A stretch of 64,000 nucleotides of DNA from an uncultured bacterium (lineage in GTDB: Bacteria; Cyanobacteriota; Vampirovibrionia; Gastranaerophilales; Gastranaerophilaceae), in NCBI GenBank assembly GCA_950022695.1, contig CATLLN010000001.1, positions 62,001-126,000 of the forward strand, in the 5' to 3' direction. The first letter of the stretch is position 1, and every line of letters begins with the position of its first letter. Both the position numbers and the translations under genes were made by a program. This document shows, piece after piece, positions 37,977 to 46,450 of this stretch. Under the pieces are notes generated by a model. It searched no databases and was not told the origin of the DNA. It saw nothing but the letters and a program-made list of their open reading frames with translations.

Positions 37977-39370
37977 TTTTCATTAATTTTGAAACTCGGA
38001 TATTCGCTGTTGCCGTTAAAGTTTTTTTCAGCTTGTTTCAAGGCTTCATAGAATAATTCGTTTAAAGCAATTTCTTTTCCGTTTTTAATAATTGTTGTTT
38101 TTGGTATGTTTTTTAAAATCTCAAACCCCTGTTCTCCTGCTCCTATATAGCGGTCAATTGTACAGGTGAATTTTTGGTCAGGATTTATCAAGTTTTGATT
38201 TTGGTCAAACAGATTTTTCCCATTTATTGTGATTTGAAGTATTTTATAGGAGTTGTCTTTTTTGTTACCTTGTCCTGTGATTGAGATGTTTTGTGAACAC
38301 TGTAAAAATCTTGAATTTCCGCGATCTTTCAGCATTCTGTATAAAAAAGCATTTTCAAAAACTTTTTTTAAATCTTTTGCAGTAATTTCTATTTTCTCAA
38401 TACTTGTAGAGGCACAAATTACACGTTCTATGTCATATTTTGTTATAAACGGACTATCCTCAAGCCTTAACGGATACATAGTAAACCCCGTAGAATGGAA
38501 CGCTATATCTGTTTCTCCTGCTTCTTTCATTTTATCTGAAATAAATGTTCCTAAAGGACAGGTGTCCGAGTATTTTTTTGTAAGATTTAAAACTCGTTTT
38601 ATTACAGGTTCTTTTAATTTTGTTTTTTGTTCATATTCTATTATCGGGATTTCGAATTCCGGAATAAATTGCAGTGAGTCAGCCGGGATGTTTTCAATTT
38701 TTTCTGATGTGATTTTGCACATTGAACGGGCAAACGAATACGGGTAAAAGATATTTCTTTCAAAATCCGGTTCTATAGGGGAATGTTCGTGCCCGCCTAT
38801 TATTAAATCAATTTGTGGAAATTTATCTTTTAGATTTTTGCTGTATGTGTACCAATGATGATTTAGGACGATAATTTTATCATACTCTTCATTTATTGAT
38901 TCAATTAGTTTTTCGAAGCTTTCTTCTGGCGGCGTTAGTTCATAGCCGAATTTTTTAGCACAAGAATTATTCAGACAAAATCCTGTGATGAGAATTTTTT
39001 CACTGTTTATGTGGATAATTTCGTATTCAGGTACAAATTTTGGTGAAAGATTTGCGCAAACAACTTTTATTCCTGTATTTTGGAATTTTTTAACAGTATC
39101 TTTTAAATACTCAAAATCGGATTTTTTGAATCCAAAGTCGTTGTTGCCTAAAGTTATAACAATCTCTGACTGCGGTAGTAATTCTTTAAGTTTCAAATAC
39201 GCGTTAACAGATAAATCTTTATCGTAAATCCCTTTGAATAAATCACCCGCATCAAGAATTAAAAAAGGTCTATTCAAATCCTTTTCAATGTTATAAATCC
39301 CGCTTAAAAGTCTGCTTAGATTTCTGCTTTCCTGATGAGAATCTGTTATTGCGTAAATATTGGTTGTCAT
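37973..39370 (-). CDS. 5'-nucleotidase/UDP-sugar hydrolase-type metallophosphatase
   Basis: Two-domain enzyme of 465 aa. The N-terminal calcineurin-like domain is IYAITDSHQ (D-x-H-like), ILDAGDLFKG, TLGNNDFGF (GNND), NHHW and GGHEHS (GHE/H). The C-terminal 5'-nucleotidase domain runs from about 250 (GTFISDKMKEAGETDIAFHS, then TCTIDRYIGAGEQGFE). There is no signal peptide, unlike the usual periplasmic members, so it is probably cytoplasmic. Divergent from uvrC. Confidence 0.85.
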   Translation of the reverse strand: MTTNIYAITDSHQESRNLSRLLSGIYNIEKDLNRPFLILDAGDLFKGIYDKDLSVNAYLKLKELLPQSEIVITLGNNDFGFKKSDFEYLKDTVKKFQNTGIKVVCANLSPKFVPEYEIIHINSEKILITGFCLNNSCAKKFGYELTPPEESFEKLIESINEEYDKIIVLNHHWYTYSKNLKDKFPQIDLIIGGHEHSPIEPDFERNIFYPYSFARSMCKITSEKIENIPADSLQFIPEFEIPIIEYEQKTKLKEPVIKRVLNLTKKYSDTCPLGTFISDKMKEAGETDIAFHSTGFTMYPLRLEDSPFITKYDIERVICASTSIEKIEITAKDLKKVFENAFLYRMLKDRGNSRFLQCSQNISITGQGNKKDNSYKILQITINGKNLFDQNQNLINPDQKFTCTIDRYIGAGEQGFEILKNIPKTTIIKNGKEIALNELFYEALKQAEKNFNGNSEYPSFKINEN

Positions 39371-39401
39371 AATATTATAATAGCAGAAAAAATCACCCTA
39401 T

Positions 39402-39409
39402 GGTATAAT
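39402..39409 (+). promoter_or_regulatory. extended -10 promoter of uvrC, leaderless
   Basis: TG-G-TATAAT (39402-39409 covers TGG and the hexamer less the last base run) ends six bases before the ATG at 39416, so transcription should start at the ATG. There is no Shine-Dalgarno sequence. Confidence 0.6.
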
Positions 39410-39415
39410 ATTTGT

Positions 39416-41086
39416 ATGAATGATAAGTTAAAAGAGAGTTTAAAGCTTTTGCCGTCTCTGCCGGGATGTTATATTTATTACAATTCCGACAACGAAATCA
39501 TTTACGTTGGGAAAGCAAAAATTCTAAAACGCCGTGTTATGTCTTATTTTAACCGTAAGCACCATGATAGCGTAAAGGTTAATGTTCTGGTCTCTCAGAT
39601 TGAGCGTTTCGAATATATAATTACAAATACTGAGGTCGAAGCTTTAATTCTTGAAAGTCATTTGATAAAAAAACACAAACCCCGTTATAATATTTTGTTA
39701 AAGGATGACAAAAAATATCCGTATTTTCTTATTACAAATGAGGATTTCCCGAGAATTTCCATTGTCAGAAAACGTAATATGAATCCTGAAAAAGGAAAGT
39801 ATTACGGACCTTACACAGATGTTCGCGCTATGCATTCCACTCTGGATTTTTTAAAAAAGATTTTTCCGCTCAAGCAATGCAAGTCACCTAAGTTTAAATC
39901 TCGTCCGTGTCTTTATTATCATATCGGGAAATGCCTTGCACCTTGTCAAAACCTTGTGACAAGTGAAGAATATAAAGCTATTGTTCACCAGGCGGAACTG
40001 TTTTTATCAGGTAAACAATCTGAACTTATGAAACAGCTTATGGAACAAATTCAAAGATATTCAGATAGCGAACAGTTTGAAAAAGCCGCAAAGCTTCGGG
40101 ATAGCTATCTTGACCTTAAAAAAACACTTGAAAAACAAAAAGTTGTGTATGAAAATACCAAGCTTAATGAAGATATAATATCTTTGGCGCATGAGGACGG
40201 AATCCTTGCTATTGTTATTATGATGATTAGAGAAGGACGGCTTATTGATAAAAAAGATTTTACATATGATGTAGAAGAAGAAGATAAAACCGAATTTTTT
40301 GCTACATTTTTCAAGGAATATTATAATACTTTAACTCTGGAATTTCCTGATAAAATCGTTTCTAATGAATTAGAAGCTGTTGGGGATAAAGCTTTGTATG
40401 AAGAGTGGCTGAATATAATTTCAGGGAAAAAGGTTAAAATAAGTTATGGTAAATCAACACAAGGAAAAGAACTTCAAACATTAGCCGATAAAAACTGCCG
40501 TGTTGTTCTTGATAATGCTAAACTGAAAAAAATGTCCAAAATCAATGAGGATTTTAATAATATTGGTTCTTATCTAAAAGAAAAATTAAAATTAAATAAT
40601 TTCCCGTATCGCATGGAATGTTACGATATTTCGCATATTCAGGGAACAAATACTGTTGCTTCTATGGTAACTTTTGTTAACGGATTAAGTAAAAAATCCG
40701 ATTACCGTAAATTTAAAATTAAAACAACAGAAGGCAAGCCTGATGATTTTCTTTCAATGAAAGAAGTTTTAACCCGAAGACTTTCTCGGCTTGGTGAAAA
40801 AGGTTGGGAAAAACCTGATTTAATAATAATTGACGGTGGCAAAGGGCAGTTATCAAGTGTTATGCAAATTGTTGAGGATATGGGAGTCTCCGGAATAGAT
40901 TTTGTCAGTCTTGCAAAACGTCAGGAAGAAGTTTTCCTTCCTCATCAGTCTAAATCTATTCTTTTACCCAGAGAATCCAGTGCATTGTTTTTAATTCAGC
41001 GTATAAGAGATGAAGCGCACAGGTTTGCAATTACATATCACAGAAAATTAAGATCTAAAAAAGCTGTCAGTCAGGATGGAAAATAA
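39416..41086 (+). CDS. uvrC: excinuclease ABC subunit C, C-terminally short
   Basis: Nuclease subunit of nucleotide excision repair. The GIY-YIG domain is at the N-terminus (GCYIYYNSDNEIIYVGKAK), then a cysteine-rich region (KSRPCLYYHIGKCLAPC), UvrB-binding motif near residue 205 (EQFEKAAKLRDSYLDL), and the RNase H-like domain (MECYDISHIQGTNTVASMV, IIIDGGKGQL, RDEAHRFAITYHRKLRSK). It stops about 10 residues after that domain. The C-terminal helix-hairpin-helix pair of usual UvrC (about 60 residues) is absent. 556 aa. Confidence 0.93.
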   Translation: MNDKLKESLKLLPSLPGCYIYYNSDNEIIYVGKAKILKRRVMSYFNRKHHDSVKVNVLVSQIERFEYIITNTEVEALILESHLIKKHKPRYNILLKDDKKYPYFLITNEDFPRISIVRKRNMNPEKGKYYGPYTDVRAMHSTLDFLKKIFPLKQCKSPKFKSRPCLYYHIGKCLAPCQNLVTSEEYKAIVHQAELFLSGKQSELMKQLMEQIQRYSDSEQFEKAAKLRDSYLDLKKTLEKQKVVYENTKLNEDIISLAHEDGILAIVIMMIREGRLIDKKDFTYDVEEEDKTEFFATFFKEYYNTLTLEFPDKIVSNELEAVGDKALYEEWLNIISGKKVKISYGKSTQGKELQTLADKNCRVVLDNAKLKKMSKINEDFNNIGSYLKEKLKLNNFPYRMECYDISHIQGTNTVASMVTFVNGLSKKSDYRKFKIKTTEGKPDDFLSMKEVLTRRLSRLGEKGWEKPDLIIIDGGKGQLSSVMQIVEDMGVSGIDFVSLAKRQEEVFLPHQSKSILLPRESSALFLIQRIRDEAHRFAITYHRKLRSKKAVSQDGK

Positions 41087-41087
41087 A

Positions 41088-41681
41088 TTATTTTCTTCGG
41101 AACATTGATTTTAGCATATCTTTTAAGCCTTTTTTAACCTGTTCAACTGTTTCCGGTTCATCTTCTACTGTTTCATCAACAGCAGATTCATGATGAAGAC
41201 TTTCTTCTACTGATAATAATTCTTCGTTATCTTCGTTTTCACTTTCGGTTTCTTCAGCTATTGGCATTGCAGCATTTAAAAGTTCTCTGAATTTTTGTTT
41301 GCGCGGTGTATCTTTTTTGGCTTCATCAGCTTCACCTTCAAGAGCGATTGCTTTATTTTCATCTTCAGCTTTAATTAAATCACTCATCGCAATATAAATT
41401 TCTCTCAAATCAGATATTACAGAATTGCCTCCAAGCCATTTTTTTACATATCTTTCATCCGGTCCGAGGCTGCCATCGGTTTTTGTACCTTCTTTGATGT
41501 TAAAAGTTGCTTCTGAAATCCCAATTGAGATAATAACATTAGGATAATGGAGTTTTGTTTCCATTCTTAATTTAAGGTTATTATATTTTGTTATGTTCAT
41601 GTTTGTAGAGTTGTGAGCATCTTGCTGGGATTTAATAATATATTGCTGTAACTTTGTGACAAGCTCGTGAAGTGTTTTCAT
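41088..41681 (-). CDS. uncharacterised protein, paralogue of the 41696 gene
   Basis: 197 aa, not recognised. The N-terminal half contains YNNLKLRMETKLHYPNVIIS, IGISEATFNIKEGTKTDGSLG and PDERYVKKWLGGNS. The C-terminal half is very acidic (ESENEDNEELLSVEESLHHE) and ends in a basic stretch. The same core is in the next upstream gene, so the two are tandem duplicates with different tails. It is last in the operon that starts with rimI. Confidence 0.75.
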   Translation of the reverse strand: MKTLHELVTKLQQYIIKSQQDAHNSTNMNITKYNNLKLRMETKLHYPNVIISIGISEATFNIKEGTKTDGSLGPDERYVKKWLGGNSVISDLREIYIAMSDLIKAEDENKAIALEGEADEAKKDTPRKQKFRELLNAAMPIAEETESENEDNEELLSVEESLHHESAVDETVEDEPETVEQVKKGLKDMLKSMFRRK

Positions 41682-41695
41682 ATATGAATCCTTAT

Positions 41696-42208
41696 TTACT
41701 TATTATTATCTATATCTTTTTTGAAACCTTTTAACCTGTTTCTTTTTCTTTGAAGTTCTTCTTGTTTAGTTGTATTGATACCTGTACCTGTCATATCAAC
41801 GCCTAAGTCTACATTTGCAGATTCTGCCCGTCTTAATCTTGCTGCAGCTGATGCTTTTTTATTAAGATCTTCGGATTCTTCGGCGGTTATGGCATCTTTT
41901 AATAATTTCCAGTGGCTCATTAATTCTTTATTGATGTTATTTCTTTCAATCCATCTTTTTACATAACCGTCTTCCGGTCCTAAGCCGCCTTCCATTTTCT
42001 TCCCGTCAATTATTGAAAAAACAGCTTCAGATATGCCTACAGTAACAAAAATATGTGGGTCAGAAAATGCTCTGGGATCCATAGATACTTTCAGGTTGTT
42101 ATATCTGTATGCATGACTTTTTGCATCCCCGTATTTGTCTGACATTGCTTTTATTAAAAATTCAATTAATGAATTATCAAATTTTGAAATGGATCTAGTT
42201 CTTGCCAT
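41696..42208 (-). CDS. uncharacterised protein, paralogue of the 41088 gene
   Basis: 170 aa, not recognised. The core YNNLKVSMDPRAFSDPHIFV, TVGISEAVFSIIDGKKMEGG and LGPEDGYVKRWIERNN matches the downstream gene at the same relative positions. The C-terminus is basic and helical (RKRNRLKGFKKDIDNNK). It lies 12 bases after the UPF0210 gene, in an operon with a stator-like ion channel pair. Confidence 0.75.
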   Translation of the reverse strand: MARTRSISKFDNSLIEFLIKAMSDKYGDAKSHAYRYNNLKVSMDPRAFSDPHIFVTVGISEAVFSIIDGKKMEGGLGPEDGYVKRWIERNNINKELMSHWKLLKDAITAEESEDLNKKASAAARLRRAESANVDLGVDMTGTGINTTKQEELQRKRNRLKGFKKDIDNNK

Positions 42209-42220
42209 TTTTATTTCCTT

Positions 42221-43582
42221 TTAGTTATTAAGACTGTGTATTGGTGCAGGAATTCTGCCGCCGCGTTGTACAAAAGTTGCTGATGAAAGTTCATTTACAG
42301 GCATAATTGGAGCTTCTCCGAGAAGTCCGCCGTATGAAATTCTATCGCCGACATCTTTTCCGTAGGCAGGAATAATTCTTACCGCGGTTGTTTTTTTGTT
42401 AATCATACCAATTGCCATTTCATCTGCTATTATACCTGCAATTGTGCTTGCCGGAGTTTTACCCGGGATTGCAATCATATCAAGACCTACAGAACAAACA
42501 GATGTCATTGCTTCAAGTTTATCAAAGACAAGATATCCTTTTGTTGCGGCTTCAATCATTCCGGCATCTTCCGATACTGGAATAAATGCTCCTGATAATC
42601 CCCCAACGTGTGAACTTGCCATAATTCCGCCTTTTTTTACCGCATCATTAAGCATTGCTAAAGCGGCTGTAGTGCCGTGAGCTCCTGCGTGCTCCAAGCC
42701 CATTGCCTGAAAAATCCCTGCAACACTATCTCCGGGAGCCGGTGTTGGTGCTAAAGAAAGATCAATTACACCAAATGGTATGTCAAGTTTTTTAGCAAGT
42801 TTTCTTCCGACCAGTTCACCGGTTGAAGTTATTTTATATGCAATTTCTTTAATTTTGTTTGCCAGTTCGCTCATATCTGCATCTTTTGGTAATGCTTCGA
42901 CTGCGGCTCTTACAACACCCGGACCTGAAACTCCGACGTTTAATGCGCATTCAGGTTCTCCCATTCCGCAAAAAGCACCTGCCATAAACGGATTATCTCC
43001 CGGCACATTACAAAATACTACAAGTTTTGCCGCACCTATCCCGTCGCGATCGGCTGTAATTTCTGCAGCCTTTTTAATGATTTCAGACATCTTTAAAACA
43101 GCATCCATATTTATTCCGGCTTTTGAAGTCGCCAGATTAACTGATGAACAAACTCTTTCAGTTTGAGCTAAAGCTTCTGGAATACTTTCTATTAAAAGTT
43201 TATCGCCTTTAGTACAGCCTTTTTCAACCAGTGCTGAAAAGCCGCCGATAAAGTTTACTCCGACTTCTTCTGCCGCTTTATCAAGAGTTTTTGCTATTTT
43301 TACATAATCAGGATTTTTGCAGGATTCTCCGATAAATGAAATTGGAGTAACTGCGATTCTTTTATTAATAATCGGTATAGAATACTCGTCAGCAAGTTCA
43401 TCTGCATATTCTACAAGATTTTTTGCATATTTTTTTATCTTGTTATAAATGTTTTCGCAAACTGTATCAATATCTTCTGCAATACAATCTCTTAAGCTCA
43501 AAGCTAATGTAACTGTTCTGATATCAAGGTTGTACAGTTTAATCATATTTATGGTTTCTATTATATTATTTTCATCTAGCAT
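42221..43582 (-). CDS. UPF0210/PFL-family protein
   Basis: 453 aa. The family is recognised by [61 protein letters not shown] and [15 protein letters not shown]. It is a conserved, uncharacterised enzyme-like family of cytoplasmic proteins. It starts three bases after the ZorB-like stop, so it is in one operon with it. Confidence 0.9.
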
Positions 43583-43585
43583 AAT

Positions 43586-44281
43586 TTAATCTTTCTTTAA
43601 TCCTAGGGCTGTCGATACATTCCAATCTTTGACTTTTAATTTTAACTCAACACGGCGGCTTTTGTCAAAATCTTCAATTCCGTTAACTAAGATTGGTTCA
43701 TTAAAACTTTTACCTTCTACAACGATAATTTTTCTAAATTGTTCAGAATATTTTTTATCATAATTTGTTTTAAAAATGTACTTTGCAACTGCATTAGCAC
43801 GTTTTAAGCTTAAATCCATATTGCGTAAGAACTGTTCATCTTTAGAGTTTATGCCTGCAAACATCTGAGAATCTGTGTGACCTTGAATGTAAATATACTG
43901 AATTTGTTCAGCCAGTTCCTTATCTGCAAAGATTGAATTTATATAAATCGGAGCAACTTTGTCCAAAAGTTTTTTCCCATTTTCAGAAAGTTCCCAGCTG
44001 GAGAGTTCAAAAAGTTCTACATCCGAGATTTTTAAGTCTCCTGTCATTTTATCAATATCAACCTGAATATTTTCTTTCTCAAGTTCACTGCTGATTTTTT
44101 CAGAAACTTCCATCTGAACCTTTTGCTGTTGAACAGATTGCTGTGAAAATCCTGTCATCGCAAGCACAAACAGTGTAATAAAAATAATTGCCAAACCTAA
44201 TAAAAGGTCTGCCATTGTTACCCAGGAGATATTACCTTCCGAATCTGAATTATTCTGTTGTGCTCTGAATTTTATACCCAT
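43586..44281 (-). CDS. ZorB/MotB-like OmpA-domain protein
   Basis: 231 aa. A single N-terminal membrane segment holds the stator-type aspartate (VTMADLLLGLAIIFITLFVL). A linker follows, then a peptidoglycan-binding OmpA/MotB domain (SSWELSENGKKLLDKVAPIY, IQGHTDSQMF, RANAVAKYIF, SRRVELKLK). With the neighbouring channel gene it forms a proton-driven stator pair. ZorB of Zorya anti-phage systems has this layout, but no ZorC, D or E genes are nearby. MotB of a flagellar motor is unlikely without flagellar genes. Confidence 0.75.
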   Translation of the reverse strand: MGIKFRAQQNNSDSEGNISWVTMADLLLGLAIIFITLFVLAMTGFSQQSVQQQKVQMEVSEKISSELEKENIQVDIDKMTGDLKISDVELFELSSWELSENGKKLLDKVAPIYINSIFADKELAEQIQYIYIQGHTDSQMFAGINSKDEQFLRNMDLSLKRANAVAKYIFKTNYDKKYSEQFRKIIVVEGKSFNEPILVNGIEDFDKSRRVELKLKVKDWNVSTALGLKKD

Positions 44282-44290
44282 TATTATCCT

Positions 44291-45199
44291 TTAAAATAAC
44301 TCATCCACAACATCTGCGGCTTTCTTTTCTTTCATTGATTCTTTGAGCTGTTTATTAAGTTGATTTAACCCAAAAATCAGGTTTTCAAGATATGGAACAA
44401 GGTTTGTTGCCATACTTGAGTTAAATGCTGTTTTAAATTGTACAGGAATTTCTGTTACAAGGTTGTTTGAGGTGTTGTTTTGAACTTTGGATTCTCTTAA
44501 AAGTTCATATAAGAATTTTTCAGCTGAAATACTTGCAAACAATCCGCCCATAATTTCTTGAATTCTTATCATTGGAGTTTTGCAAAGTTTGTTGTACATG
44601 ATTCTTTCAAGCATCAAATATATAAGTGAAGAACCAACCGCAATAACAGATACTAATGCTGCAGTCTGCATACTTGTCATAAAGCTTGAAACAGATGCGA
44701 TTGTTTTTTCCTGAGTTGAAAAATCAATTTTTCCGAATGCAATTGCAATATTTAAAAAAGTGAACAACGGACCAAAACCTGTTAAAATTGTCGGTATTGT
44801 TTGAATCATTTTGAAATTGAATTTTGATGTAACAAGTGTTTCTTCGTTGAAATAATACAAAGGGTCAGATGTTGTTTGAACATTTTGAACTGTTGATGAT
44901 ATATCTTGATATTTAACGTTGTCGCTGCCGGATTTCAGTGCGATGGATTCAGAAAACACAAGAGTGTTTTTAAATTCAATCCAGGCGGCTGAAACATAAG
45001 GATTCTGGCTCATCCAGGTATCAATTTCTTTGAATCTGAAGTTTAAGTCGTTTTTCTTAAAGCCTTCCATGTAATTTATTATTAACTGAAGATTTTTTCC
45101 TGTTGCCAGATACTTTGAAAAACAATAAATTGTAGAAGAGATAAATACTACCACTACAATCAAAATCGGTATATCTGAAATAACATTTAAAAAGTTCAT
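44291..45199 (-). CDS. ZorA/MotA-like proton channel protein
   Basis: 302 aa. The membrane segments are at about residues 7-30 (IPILIVVVVFISSTIYCF) and in IPTILTGFGPLFTFLNIAIA plus AALVSVIAVGSSLIYLML, the usual MotA/TolQ/ExbB core. A basic/helical cytoplasmic tail follows. The short length lacks the very long tail helix of defence ZorA. The ATG at 45199 has AAGGAAGG upstream and is better than the ATG at 45250. Paired with the OmpA-domain gene ten bases downstream. Confidence 0.7.
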   Translation of the reverse strand: MNFLNVISDIPILIVVVVFISSTIYCFSKYLATGKNLQLIINYMEGFKKNDLNFRFKEIDTWMSQNPYVSAAWIEFKNTLVFSESIALKSGSDNVKYQDISSTVQNVQTTSDPLYYFNEETLVTSKFNFKMIQTIPTILTGFGPLFTFLNIAIAFGKIDFSTQEKTIASVSSFMTSMQTAALVSVIAVGSSLIYLMLERIMYNKLCKTPMIRIQEIMGGLFASISAEKFLYELLRESKVQNNTSNNLVTEIPVQFKTAFNSSMATNLVPYLENLIFGLNQLNKQLKESMKEKKAADVVDELF

Positions 45200-45254
45200 A
45201 AATTCACCTTCCTTGACTGTTATTGTAGCATAGAAAGCATTAACTGGCAATAAG

Positions 45255-45920
45255 TTAGTCTATAATGAACTTTAAGCCTTTGTGTAAATATTTCCCGATA
45301 AGGATTAATACAAAACTTACAATCAGGTCGTATATTATTTTTAAACCGCTTTGAGCTTCGATCCAACCGGAAATAAAAGTTCCGCCTGCGTGTTTTATCA
45401 ACGCAATAACAATCATATATAGGATTCCAAGGATATGGATTGTTAATACACCTGTTGTTGCCGCAAGAATCATATTTTTAAATGAATATTTATTGCTTAA
45501 AAATCTTCCTGCTATCAATACAGCCGGAATGTATGCCAGGATGTAGCCAAATCCATATTGAGCCAAATATTTTATTCCGCCGCCAAGTCCGAACACTGGA
45601 GCTAAAAATAAACCAATTATTATATAAAGCATAATACTTGTTAGTGAAAGCTTGCGGCCTAAAACAGAACAAACAAACATTACTATAGGTATCTGCGGAA
45701 TTAAAAAGAAACTGTATACAAAATCTTCTGCTGACAATACTTTGTTAGAGAAGATGTCTGGCGGAATTATGTAATGTCTGATATTAAAATTTATAAAAGT
45801 TGAGCCTATAATTATTAAAGTGCAAAAAAAGATTGCGGCAAGATTAATAAGAGGGATTTTTATCCTTCTTTTATTTCTGTCTATCCGTTTCATTTTTGGT
45901 ATTAAAATATCCTGGTTCAT
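45255..45920 (-). CDS. BioY-like substrate-capture membrane protein
   Basis: 221 aa with about six membrane segments. Conserved-looking BioY features are SLTSIMLYIIIGLFLAPVFG, GLGGGIKYLAQYGFGYILAY and IPAVLIAGRFL. BioY is the S component that captures biotin for ECF transporters. The cell also has biotin synthesis genes here, so uptake and synthesis may coexist. The ATG overlaps the rimI stop by four bases. Substrate is inferred. Confidence 0.65.
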   Translation of the reverse strand: MNQDILIPKMKRIDRNKRRIKIPLINLAAIFFCTLIIIGSTFINFNIRHYIIPPDIFSNKVLSAEDFVYSFFLIPQIPIVMFVCSVLGRKLSLTSIMLYIIIGLFLAPVFGLGGGIKYLAQYGFGYILAYIPAVLIAGRFLSNKYSFKNMILAATTGVLTIHILGILYMIVIALIKHAGGTFISGWIEAQSGLKIIYDLIVSFVLILIGKYLHKGLKFIID

Positions 45921-46450
45921 TTTATTATAATTTTTTCCTGCAAATCTTTTATAATTTTTTCATAGTTGTTTTTAAACTCATCAAAGAAAATATTTTTTGT
46001 CCACATAATGAGTGCATCTTCATTGTTGTTCTGGTAGTAACCTTTTCTGGTTCCAAATGAAGAAAATCCGTATTTAGTATAAAGATTAATAGCGGCTGTA
46101 TTGCTTACTCTGACTTCAAGGGTAATATATTTTATTTTTTCGTTGTAACAGTCATCTATAATTTGTTTTAAAAGACATTGACCGTAATTTTTTCTGCGAT
46201 AATCCGGGGCAACAGCAACTGTTGTTATGTGTGCTTCTTCTAATATGTGCCAGCATCCGGCATAGCCTGCTAATATCCCATCAGGTGTGTAAAGAGTATA
46301 ATACCTTGCAAGTTCGTTATTAACTTCATTTAAGAAAGAATCTTTTGACCAATGGTGATCACCATAGGCGGATTCTTCGATCTTTATAACCCCGTCAATA
46401 TCTTCAGGGGTCATTCTTTTGATAATAACAGTTTCAAGATTAGTTTGCAT
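45917..46450 (-). CDS. rimI: RimI-like ribosomal protein alanine N-acetyltransferase
   Basis: 177 aa GNAT enzyme. The start is IKRMTPEDIDGVIKIEESAY, with the acetyl-CoA loop VAPDYRRKNYGQCLLKQIID and VRVSNTAAINLYTKYGFSS. RimI acetylates S18; rpsR lies elsewhere in the window. It has a C-terminal extension of about 30 charged residues. It is the first gene of the minus-strand operon ending at 41088. Confidence 0.85.
   Translation of the reverse strand: MQTNLETVIIKRMTPEDIDGVIKIEESAYGDHHWSKDSFLNEVNNELARYYTLYTPDGILAGYAGCWHILEEAHITTVAVAPDYRRKNYGQCLLKQIIDDCYNEKIKYITLEVRVSNTAAINLYTKYGFSSFGTRKGYYQNNNEDALIMWTKNIFFDEFKNNYEKIIKDLQEKIIIK

What the first reader, a model, noticed from the sequence alone, without database searches (positions are those of the whole stretch)
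41088..42208. Tandem paralogues of an unrecognised family
Seen: two adjacent genes share YNNLK...GISEA-F-I..G-K..G-LGP...YVK-W and then diverge into an acidic tail (41088) and a basic tail (41696). The shared core of about 80 residues with the order strand, strand, loop is compact enough for a small domain. The acidic and basic tails could bind each other or nucleic acid. They end the stator operon.
Basis: partly seen in the sequence, partly recalled or inferred. Interest (0 to 1): 0.6.

Follow-up and report, generated by a model that had tools for sequence, protein, structure and literature searches.

The report
Histidine-less DUF4160 cousins beside stator genes
Two neighbouring genes of an uncultured gut bacterium are old duplicates of a small protein that is a distant, histidine-stripped cousin of a known bacterial toxin domain (DUF4160) and is usually inherited next to genes for a tiny membrane motor, which suggests it helps that motor, although what it does is still untested.

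Summary
In detail: two adjacent minus-strand genes (41088-41681, 41696-42208) are tandem paralogues (BLASTP E 1e-21) ending an operon with ZorA/ZorB-like stator genes; a DUF711 gene lies between. The family is not wholly unrecognised: its core is a divergent branch of DUF4160, the domain of toxin DhiT (sub-threshold Pfam/NCBIfam hits, reciprocal HMM hits, profile-profile 96%, matching AlphaFold topology). It lacks the histidine invariant in DUF4160 (0 of 77 against 27 of 27). It was found in 194 of 286 genomes of the order, all in one family of gut Gastranaerophilales. The acidic/basic-tail idea fails: most same-genus loci show one copy, outside the genus paralogue A has almost no tail, and tail charges vary. 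The A/B split predates the genus. Strong members co-occur with ZorB (144 of 148 genomes) and stay beside ZorB where DUF711 is lost; but ZorAB often persists without them, and some members sit beside DUF711 only. Best reading, moderate to low confidence: a cytoplasmic accessory of a rod-less ZorAB-like stator, not a toxin and not Zorya defence.

The parts
41696..42208 (-). Paralogue B ('basic'), 170 aa: N-terminal helices, DUF4160-like core, basic C-terminal tail with a conserved GTG-type motif
   Evidence: ORF; DUF4160 hit 16.8 bits and DhiT hit 19.8 bits, both below curated cut-offs; clade B in the tree; AlphaFold model mean pLDDT 84.7
41891..42112 (-). DUF4160-like core of paralogue B (residues 33-106)
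   Evidence: hhalign alignment to the DUF4160 profile, probability 96.0, E 4e-9 for one comparison
42047..42058 (-). Residues P51 H52 I53 F54: the site of the H-x-H of DUF4160, second His replaced
   Evidence: His at this second position in 0 of 77 family rows, 27 of 27 DUF4160 rows
41777..41800 (-). VDMTGTGI motif in the tail of paralogue B
   Evidence: tail listing: similar GTG-type motif in B copies of other genera
41088..41681 (-). Paralogue A ('acidic'), 197 aa: same core, acidic linker, basic C-terminal segment
   Evidence: ORF; BLASTP to B E 1e-21; clade with all A copies of the genus
41361..41681 (-). Core of paralogue A (residues 1-107) shared with B
41091..41138 (-). C-terminal basic segment of paralogue A (residues 182-197); a similar pattern recurs in many A copies of the genus
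42221..43582 (-). DUF711 protein, 453 aa, between stator genes and the pair
   Evidence: Pfam E 1.6e-188
43586..44281 (-). ZorB/MotB-like protein, 231 aa, invariant Asp25, OmpA-type domain
   Evidence: PADLOC ZorB1 E 7.5e-48; OmpA E 6.4e-8; D25 invariant in 16 of 16 rows
44291..45250 (-). ZorA/MotA-like protein, 319 aa as listed (an internal start would give about 302 aa), without a long rod
   Evidence: PADLOC ZorA1 E 1.8e-19, profile positions 16-240 of 727; lengths in relatives
45255..45920 (-). BioY-type transporter, same operon
   Evidence: Pfam E 3.9e-20
45917..46450 (-). RimI acetyltransferase, first gene of the run
   Evidence: TIGR01575 E 7.6e-39
39335..41086 (+). UvrC, convergent neighbour that bounds the operon
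   Evidence: ORF; same neighbour in many relatives; the name UvrC is recalled from the sequence, no family search was run on it

Best explanation
The two genes encode small soluble proteins built on a divergent DUF4160 domain that has lost the invariant histidine of that domain. Shown by computation: they are ancient tandem paralogues (A and B) of one family, found only in family f1 (gut Gastranaerophilales) in the genomes sampled, and usually encoded just after a ZorA/ZorB-like stator, with or without DUF711. Inferred: they are not DhiT-type toxins. They sit on the cytoplasmic side of the rod-less ZorAB-like stator as accessory or adaptor subunits, which would couple or gate its ion-driven motion to a cytoplasmic partner. 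The fast-evolving tails would be partner-specific binding segments, longest in this genus.
For: DUF4160 kinship: 18 of 77 members reach Pfam DUF4160 at E<=1, the next family 5. The DUF4160 HMM finds the window gene at 18 bits. The family HMM finds bona fide DUF4160 genes at E 8e-6, 9e-6 and 1.8e-4, among them the only match outside family f1. hhalign gives 96% and E 4e-9; with a 90-row family alignment DUF4160 gave 9e-10 while 12 unrelated control families gave E 0.18 or worse. Secondary structure matches element by element from strand 2 of the DUF4160 model onward. Histidine loss: 0 of 77 against 27 of 27. Stator link: 31 of 33 same-genus loci hold ZorA-ZorB-DUF711-member in order, the other 2 are cut by contig ends. 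Same order in 11 other genera, several loci without DUF711. In 11 genomes where the member abuts ZorB, DUF711 is absent from the whole genome, 0 of 11. Strong members: 144 of 148 genomes also have ZorB. G008 of the same genus shows neither ZorB, DUF711 nor the member.
Against: 53 of 197 ZorB-bearing genomes have no member, and there are loci with ZorAB-DUF711 kept and no member (L214, L215, L169, L170), so the stator does not need it. In 7 loci of genera g30, g31 and g50 the member sits beside DUF711 while ZorAB is not adjacent. The 46 weak members all lack ZorB; over all 194 genomes with any match, 144 have ZorB. The cut between strong and weak was made after seeing the tables, and the genomes are related, so the Fisher value is not a probability. 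No contact between the proteins was tested. Pfam's curated DUF4160 cut-off is not reached by the window proteins.
Confidence: 0.4

Rival explanations
1. The proteins work with DUF711 (a protein of the RNR/PFL barrel superfamily, function unknown), for example as its regulators, and the stator is only an operon neighbour.
For: In 7 loci (L151-L157; g30, g31, g50) the member follows DUF711 with no ZorAB adjacent. DUF711 directly precedes it in the window and in the genus. DUF711 is placed in the same barrel superfamily as RNR and PFL in PMC4390871 (passage seen).
Against: In 11 genomes of 6 genera the member sits next to ZorB and DUF711 is absent from the genome, 0 of 11; G276 also keeps the member without DUF711. 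G107, G112, G160 and G040 keep DUF711 and show no member.
Confidence: 0.2
2. A and B are a toxin-antitoxin pair, or live DUF4160 toxins of the DhiT kind kept in check by the operon.
For: DhiT of Dickeya dadantii is a DUF4160 protein that arrests growth and is neutralised by a DUF2442 protein (PMC8198452, passages seen). B hits the DhiT model at E 9e-4. Two adjacent small genes.
Against: Invariant His lost in all 77 rows. 22 of 33 same-genus loci show one copy, two of these at contig ends where a second copy cannot be excluded. The operon neighbour of the pair is DUF711, not DUF2442. Both copies share one fold, unlike most toxin and antitoxin pairs.
Confidence: 0.08
3. The locus is a vertically inherited Zorya-like envelope sensor and the DUF4160-like proteins are its recruited effectors, as ZorE or ZorCD are in Zorya.
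For: ZorB matches a Zorya I ZorB model at E 7.5e-48 and ZorA one at 1.8e-19. In Zorya soluble effectors are recruited by ZorAB (PMC11890865, passages seen). D25 of ZorB is invariant. Linkage of the member to ZorB survives loss of DUF711.
Against: ZorA lacks the long rod that PMC11890865 reports to be important for defence. No ZorC, D, E, F or G among the other operon genes scanned. Near-universal, syntenic inheritance in the genus, not the patchy pattern usual for defence genes (recalled).
Confidence: 0.1
4. They are the cytoplasmic partner of a flagellar motor.
For: A stator-like pair is in the operon; FlhA-type export genes occur in 40 of 40 relatives.
Against: FliG_C was not found in the own genome nor in 4 other genomes of the genus, 0 of 5. 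Genomes with FliG carry separate canonical MotA genes of 257-270 aa.
Confidence: 0.03

Closest known systems
DUF4160 (PF13711), including toxin DhiT (NF048015)
   Same: Core sequence pattern, profile-profile match, strand order and two closing helices.
   Different: Lacks the invariant His (0 of 77 against 27 of 27) and mostly the upstream His; has N-terminal helices in place of the first strand; no DUF2442 gene next to it in the operon; chromosomal operon conserved in the genus.
Zorya systems (ZorAB plus soluble effectors)
   Same: ZorB-like and ZorA-like stator genes near small proteins without membrane-protein matches.
   Different: No long ZorA rod, no ZorC/D/E/F/G in the operon, inherited in synteny across the genus.
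MotAB flagellar stators
   Same: MotB-like Asp, OmpA-type domain.
   Different: ZorA was not matched by the MotA_ExbB model in the own genome (its only match lies elsewhere); no FliG in the genus members tested.
DUF711 (PF05167)
   Same: Neighbour gene, not a homologue.
   Different: A separate protein that is absent from 11 genomes keeping the ZorB-member pair.

Membership tests
DUF4160 (PF13711) | Score over Pfam's curated cut-off (23 bits) | tested here: not met
   16.8 bits for B, none for A; best of 77 members E 5.3e-4
DUF4160 superfamily (homology) | Profile-profile and reciprocal HMM similarity over the whole domain | tested here: met
   hhalign 96%, E 4e-9; 12 controls E 0.18 or worse; reciprocal hits
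DUF4160 (PF13711) | Conserved H-x-H at the second long strand | tested here: not met
   second His 0 of 77, first His 59 of 77; in DUF4160 27 of 27 and 26 of 27
DUF4160 (PF13711) | Strand order followed by two helices | tested here: met
   AlphaFold E40-42 E52-57 E60-65 E71-74 H79-88 H90-130 against E10-13 E23-28 E31-36 E42-46 H49-61 H63-74; not superposed
DhiT toxin | DUF2442 antitoxin gene adjacent | tested here: not met
   operon neighbour is DUF711; the convergent neighbour is a long UvrC-like ORF
DhiT toxin | Growth inhibition on expression | not testable with these tools
   needs an experiment
Zorya | ZorB with ion-carrying Asp and peptidoglycan-binding domain | tested here: met
   D25 in 16 of 16 rows; OmpA domain E 6.4e-8
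Zorya | ZorA with long cytoplasmic rod | tested here: not met
   match ends at profile position 240 of 727 with about 60 residues left; relatives mostly 292-327 aa
Zorya | ZorC, D, E, F or G effector in the operon | tested here: not met
   none among the operon proteins scanned; the rest of the genome was not searched for them
Flagellar motor partner | Rotor protein FliG in the genome | tested here: not met
   0 of 5 genomes of the genus, G000 included

The most novel reading that the evidence does not exclude
A toxin-type domain (DUF4160) was disarmed by loss of its histidine and domesticated as a moving or gating part of a rod-less ZorAB-like ion motor, giving a vertically inherited, housekeeping relative of the Zorya machine in non-flagellated gut relatives of cyanobacteria.
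Probability: 0.15. Interest if true: 0.75.

Novelty: new variant of a known kind. Interest (0 to 1): 0.45.

Why it matters
If the link is functional, it would show a ZorAB-type motor serving the cell rather than fighting phages, with a soluble partner derived from a toxin fold. That bears on where the Zorya motor came from and on what stator-like motors do in bacteria without flagella. It also offers a testable sequence rule (loss of the DUF4160 H-x-H) for separating likely toxins from likely non-toxins in a domain for which no solved structure was found here by sequence.

Tried and rejected
Tail-tail binding: rejected as a conserved feature. Charge complementarity is confined to the window and its closest B-A relatives (L031-L035), and A tails range from -21 to +11 in the genus.

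Recent duplication in this genome: rejected. B of the window groups with B copies of six loci of other genera (18 rows, SH-aLRT 96; 119 columns, many forks unresolved). Other tandem pairs arose separately: one in the ancestor of L054, L055, L056 and L059, another in L142/L149.

Fold search of the B model against PDB and BFVD: no match at E<=0.001; VIA-align best Z 5.5 to MHC-like folds, below the level that means anything. The DUF4160 model also had no match in PDB. No conclusion about fold novelty is drawn.

PDB by sequence: nothing for the family or for DUF4160. Viral contigs: 169 pattern matches, none a relative. PHROGs and PADLOC gave only weak, unconnected hits for the pair. The promoter scan gave counts near those of shuffles and was not used.

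Docking peptide on ZorA: ZorA ends in a conserved acidic D-x-V-D-[DE]-L-F-like peptide, but lineages without the member have it too (L169, L170, L214, L215), so it does not mark the partner.

Papers: 'Zorya' with 'DUF4160' together, 0 papers; DUF4160, 6 papers; DhiT with toxin, 4; DUF711, 1 paper; ZorA+ZorB+stator, 1 paper. Only this library was searched, so absence elsewhere is not claimed. A search of Gastranaerophilales with 'MotA' listed only papers on other matters. PMC12654330 and PMC5877343: passages seen.

Full report
What is there. Two minus-strand ORFs, 170 aa (41696-42208, here B) and 197 aa (41088-41681, here A), lie 14 bases apart at the end of a run of minus-strand genes: RimI, BioY, a ZorA-like protein, a ZorB-like protein, DUF711, B, A; UvrC (name recalled) converges from the other side. 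B and A share 32% identity over 107 residues, E 1e-21. Against the nearest relative (G001) both show dN/dS near 0.06, so both are real, constrained genes.

Distribution. In the first search 34 of 60 genomes had the family, all in the window's genus, 34 of its 37 genomes (genus count made by hand from its table). A profile found it in 194 of 286 genomes of the order, 24 of 50 genera, all in one family, f1. In 194 genomes drawn from the phylum 65 matched, all but one in f1; the exception, G310, is at a DUF4160 gene. Named records with close relatives are Candidatus Gastranaerophilales and Candidatus Melainabacteria metagenome genomes, so the host is almost certainly a gut member of that group (inference).

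What the domain is. B reaches Pfam DUF4160 at E 0.0079 and the NCBIfam toxin DhiT at E 9e-4, both below the curated cut-offs; A reaches neither. Of 77 members scanned one by one, 18 hit DUF4160 at E<=1 (best 5e-4), the next family 5. The DUF4160 HMM run over the order picks up the window's B gene at 18 bits, and the family HMM picks up real DUF4160 genes. Profile-profile comparison gives 96% and E 4e-9; with a 90-row family alignment DUF4160 gave E 9e-10 and 12 unrelated families used as controls gave E 0.18 or worse. AlphaFold of B with 77 rows has mean pLDDT 84.7; AlphaFold of a cyanobacterial-phylum DUF4160 protein with 27 rows has 96.6. From the second DUF4160 strand on, the elements follow in the same order; in B two helices replace the first strand. 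I conclude homology with DUF4160, as a divergent branch. No structure superposition was made.

What it has lost. In 27 DUF4160 proteins the His at position 25 is present in 27, His23 in 26 and His19 in 26; in 77 family members the position of His25 is never His, the position of His23 is His in 59, and only 8 have any His in the stretch that would hold His19. Genuine DUF4160 proteins occur separately in the same order (L064-L068). That these histidines are catalytic is my inference; no mechanism of DhiT is given in the passages of PMC8198452 that I saw.

Paralogue history. The tree (90 rows, 119 columns, quick method) joins all 12 B copies of the genus with six copies of other genera at SH-aLRT 96, and all 33 A copies of the genus at 98. 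So the A/B split is older than the genus; an A+A tandem arose separately in the ancestor of L054/L055/L056/L059 and a further tandem pair in L142/L149. In the 33 same-genus loci read, 11 show two copies and 22 one, of which 2 (L037, L063) are at contig ends where a second copy cannot be excluded (counted by hand).

Tails. Outside the genus A has a tail of 0-23 residues; within it 44-127 residues with net charge -21 to +11; B has 45-71 residues, mostly positive, -7 to +10 (tail boundaries set by a script). Clearly opposite charges occur only in the window and L031-L035. Better conserved than charge are short motifs: a basic segment at the end of many A copies and a GTG-type motif in B. In G018/G036 the A tail evolves faster than its core (dN/dS 0.18 against 0.02).

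Linkage. All 33 same-genus loci show the neighbourhood, 31 with ZorA, ZorB, DUF711 and the member in order and 2 cut by contig ends. Beyond the genus, in 58 loci examined, the same order, or ZorB-member without DUF711, recurs in 11 other genera; 7 loci (L151-L157) have DUF711-member without adjacent ZorAB; L158 has the member without either; weak members in g33/g34 sit by a Tgt gene. I chose most of those loci because they had matches, so they are not a random sample. In 11 genomes where the member abuts ZorB (7 read as loci, 4 judged by coordinates), DUF711 is missing from the genome, 0 of 11. Over the order: 148 strong members, 144 with ZorB; 53 ZorB genomes without any member; 46 weak members, none with ZorB. 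The strong/weak border (between E 2e-18 and 4e-15) was set after seeing the data. Other families of the order, and several genera of f1, have ZorAB alone or ZorAB-DUF711, so the motor can do without the member and may be older than the partnership.

The motor. ZorB matches a Zorya I model at E 7.5e-48 and keeps its Asp and OmpA domain; ZorA matches only the first 240 of 727 positions and has no long rod. PMC11890865 (passages seen) reports that the rod, the Asp and peptidoglycan binding are important for Zorya, and that soluble effectors are recruited. FliG_C was not found in the genus (0 of 5 genomes), and genomes with FliG have separate MotA genes, so this is unlikely to be a flagellar stator here. 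PMC4040986 (passages seen) also reports that only three of nine Gastranaerophilales genomes had complete flagellar gene sets.

Mechanism, shown and inferred. Shown by computation: DUF4160 kinship, loss of the invariant His, ancient paralogy, and recurrent synteny with ZorB that survives loss of DUF711. Inferred: the proteins are soluble and cytoplasmic (no signal or membrane test was run), are not toxins, and act as accessory adaptors of the stator. Confidence in the identity part is high (about 0.9), in the adaptor role low to moderate (about 0.4).

Verdict. A correctly spotted but partly misnamed pair: a new, lineage-restricted variant of a known domain, of moderate interest because of its partnership with a Zorya-like motor outside defence.

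Noticed in passing
44291-45250 (C-terminus of the ZorA-like protein): ZorA ends in a conserved acidic D-x-V-D-[DE]-L-F-like C-terminal peptide in most lineages of the family, also where the DUF4160-like member is absent; it looks like a docking peptide.
   Followed up: partly
own genome G000, contigs C5 and C6 (outside the window): A full-length FlhA-type gene and a second protein of about 496 aa matching only the C-terminal half of FHIPEP occur in nearly all relatives searched, although FliG_C is absent in the genus members tested.
   Followed up: no
41401-41700: The core of paralogue A is only about 80% identical in DNA to the nearest relative G001 while most of the operon is about 90-97%, mostly through synonymous change (pS 0.79 in the A core); possible recombination or hotspot.
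   Followed up: partly
42221-43582 (DUF711): DUF711 is absent from 13 of 21 genomes tested, several times missing from between ZorB and the paralogues.
   Followed up: partly
L176, L178, L181, L185-L187: Very divergent members sit next to a Tgt gene in genera without the ZorAB-like stator, suggesting another partner there.
   Followed up: no
L188 (genome G032, same genus): Only a C-terminal fragment-like match (model positions 82-162, E 2.4e-4) remains in a genome without the ZorB-like gene.
   Followed up: no
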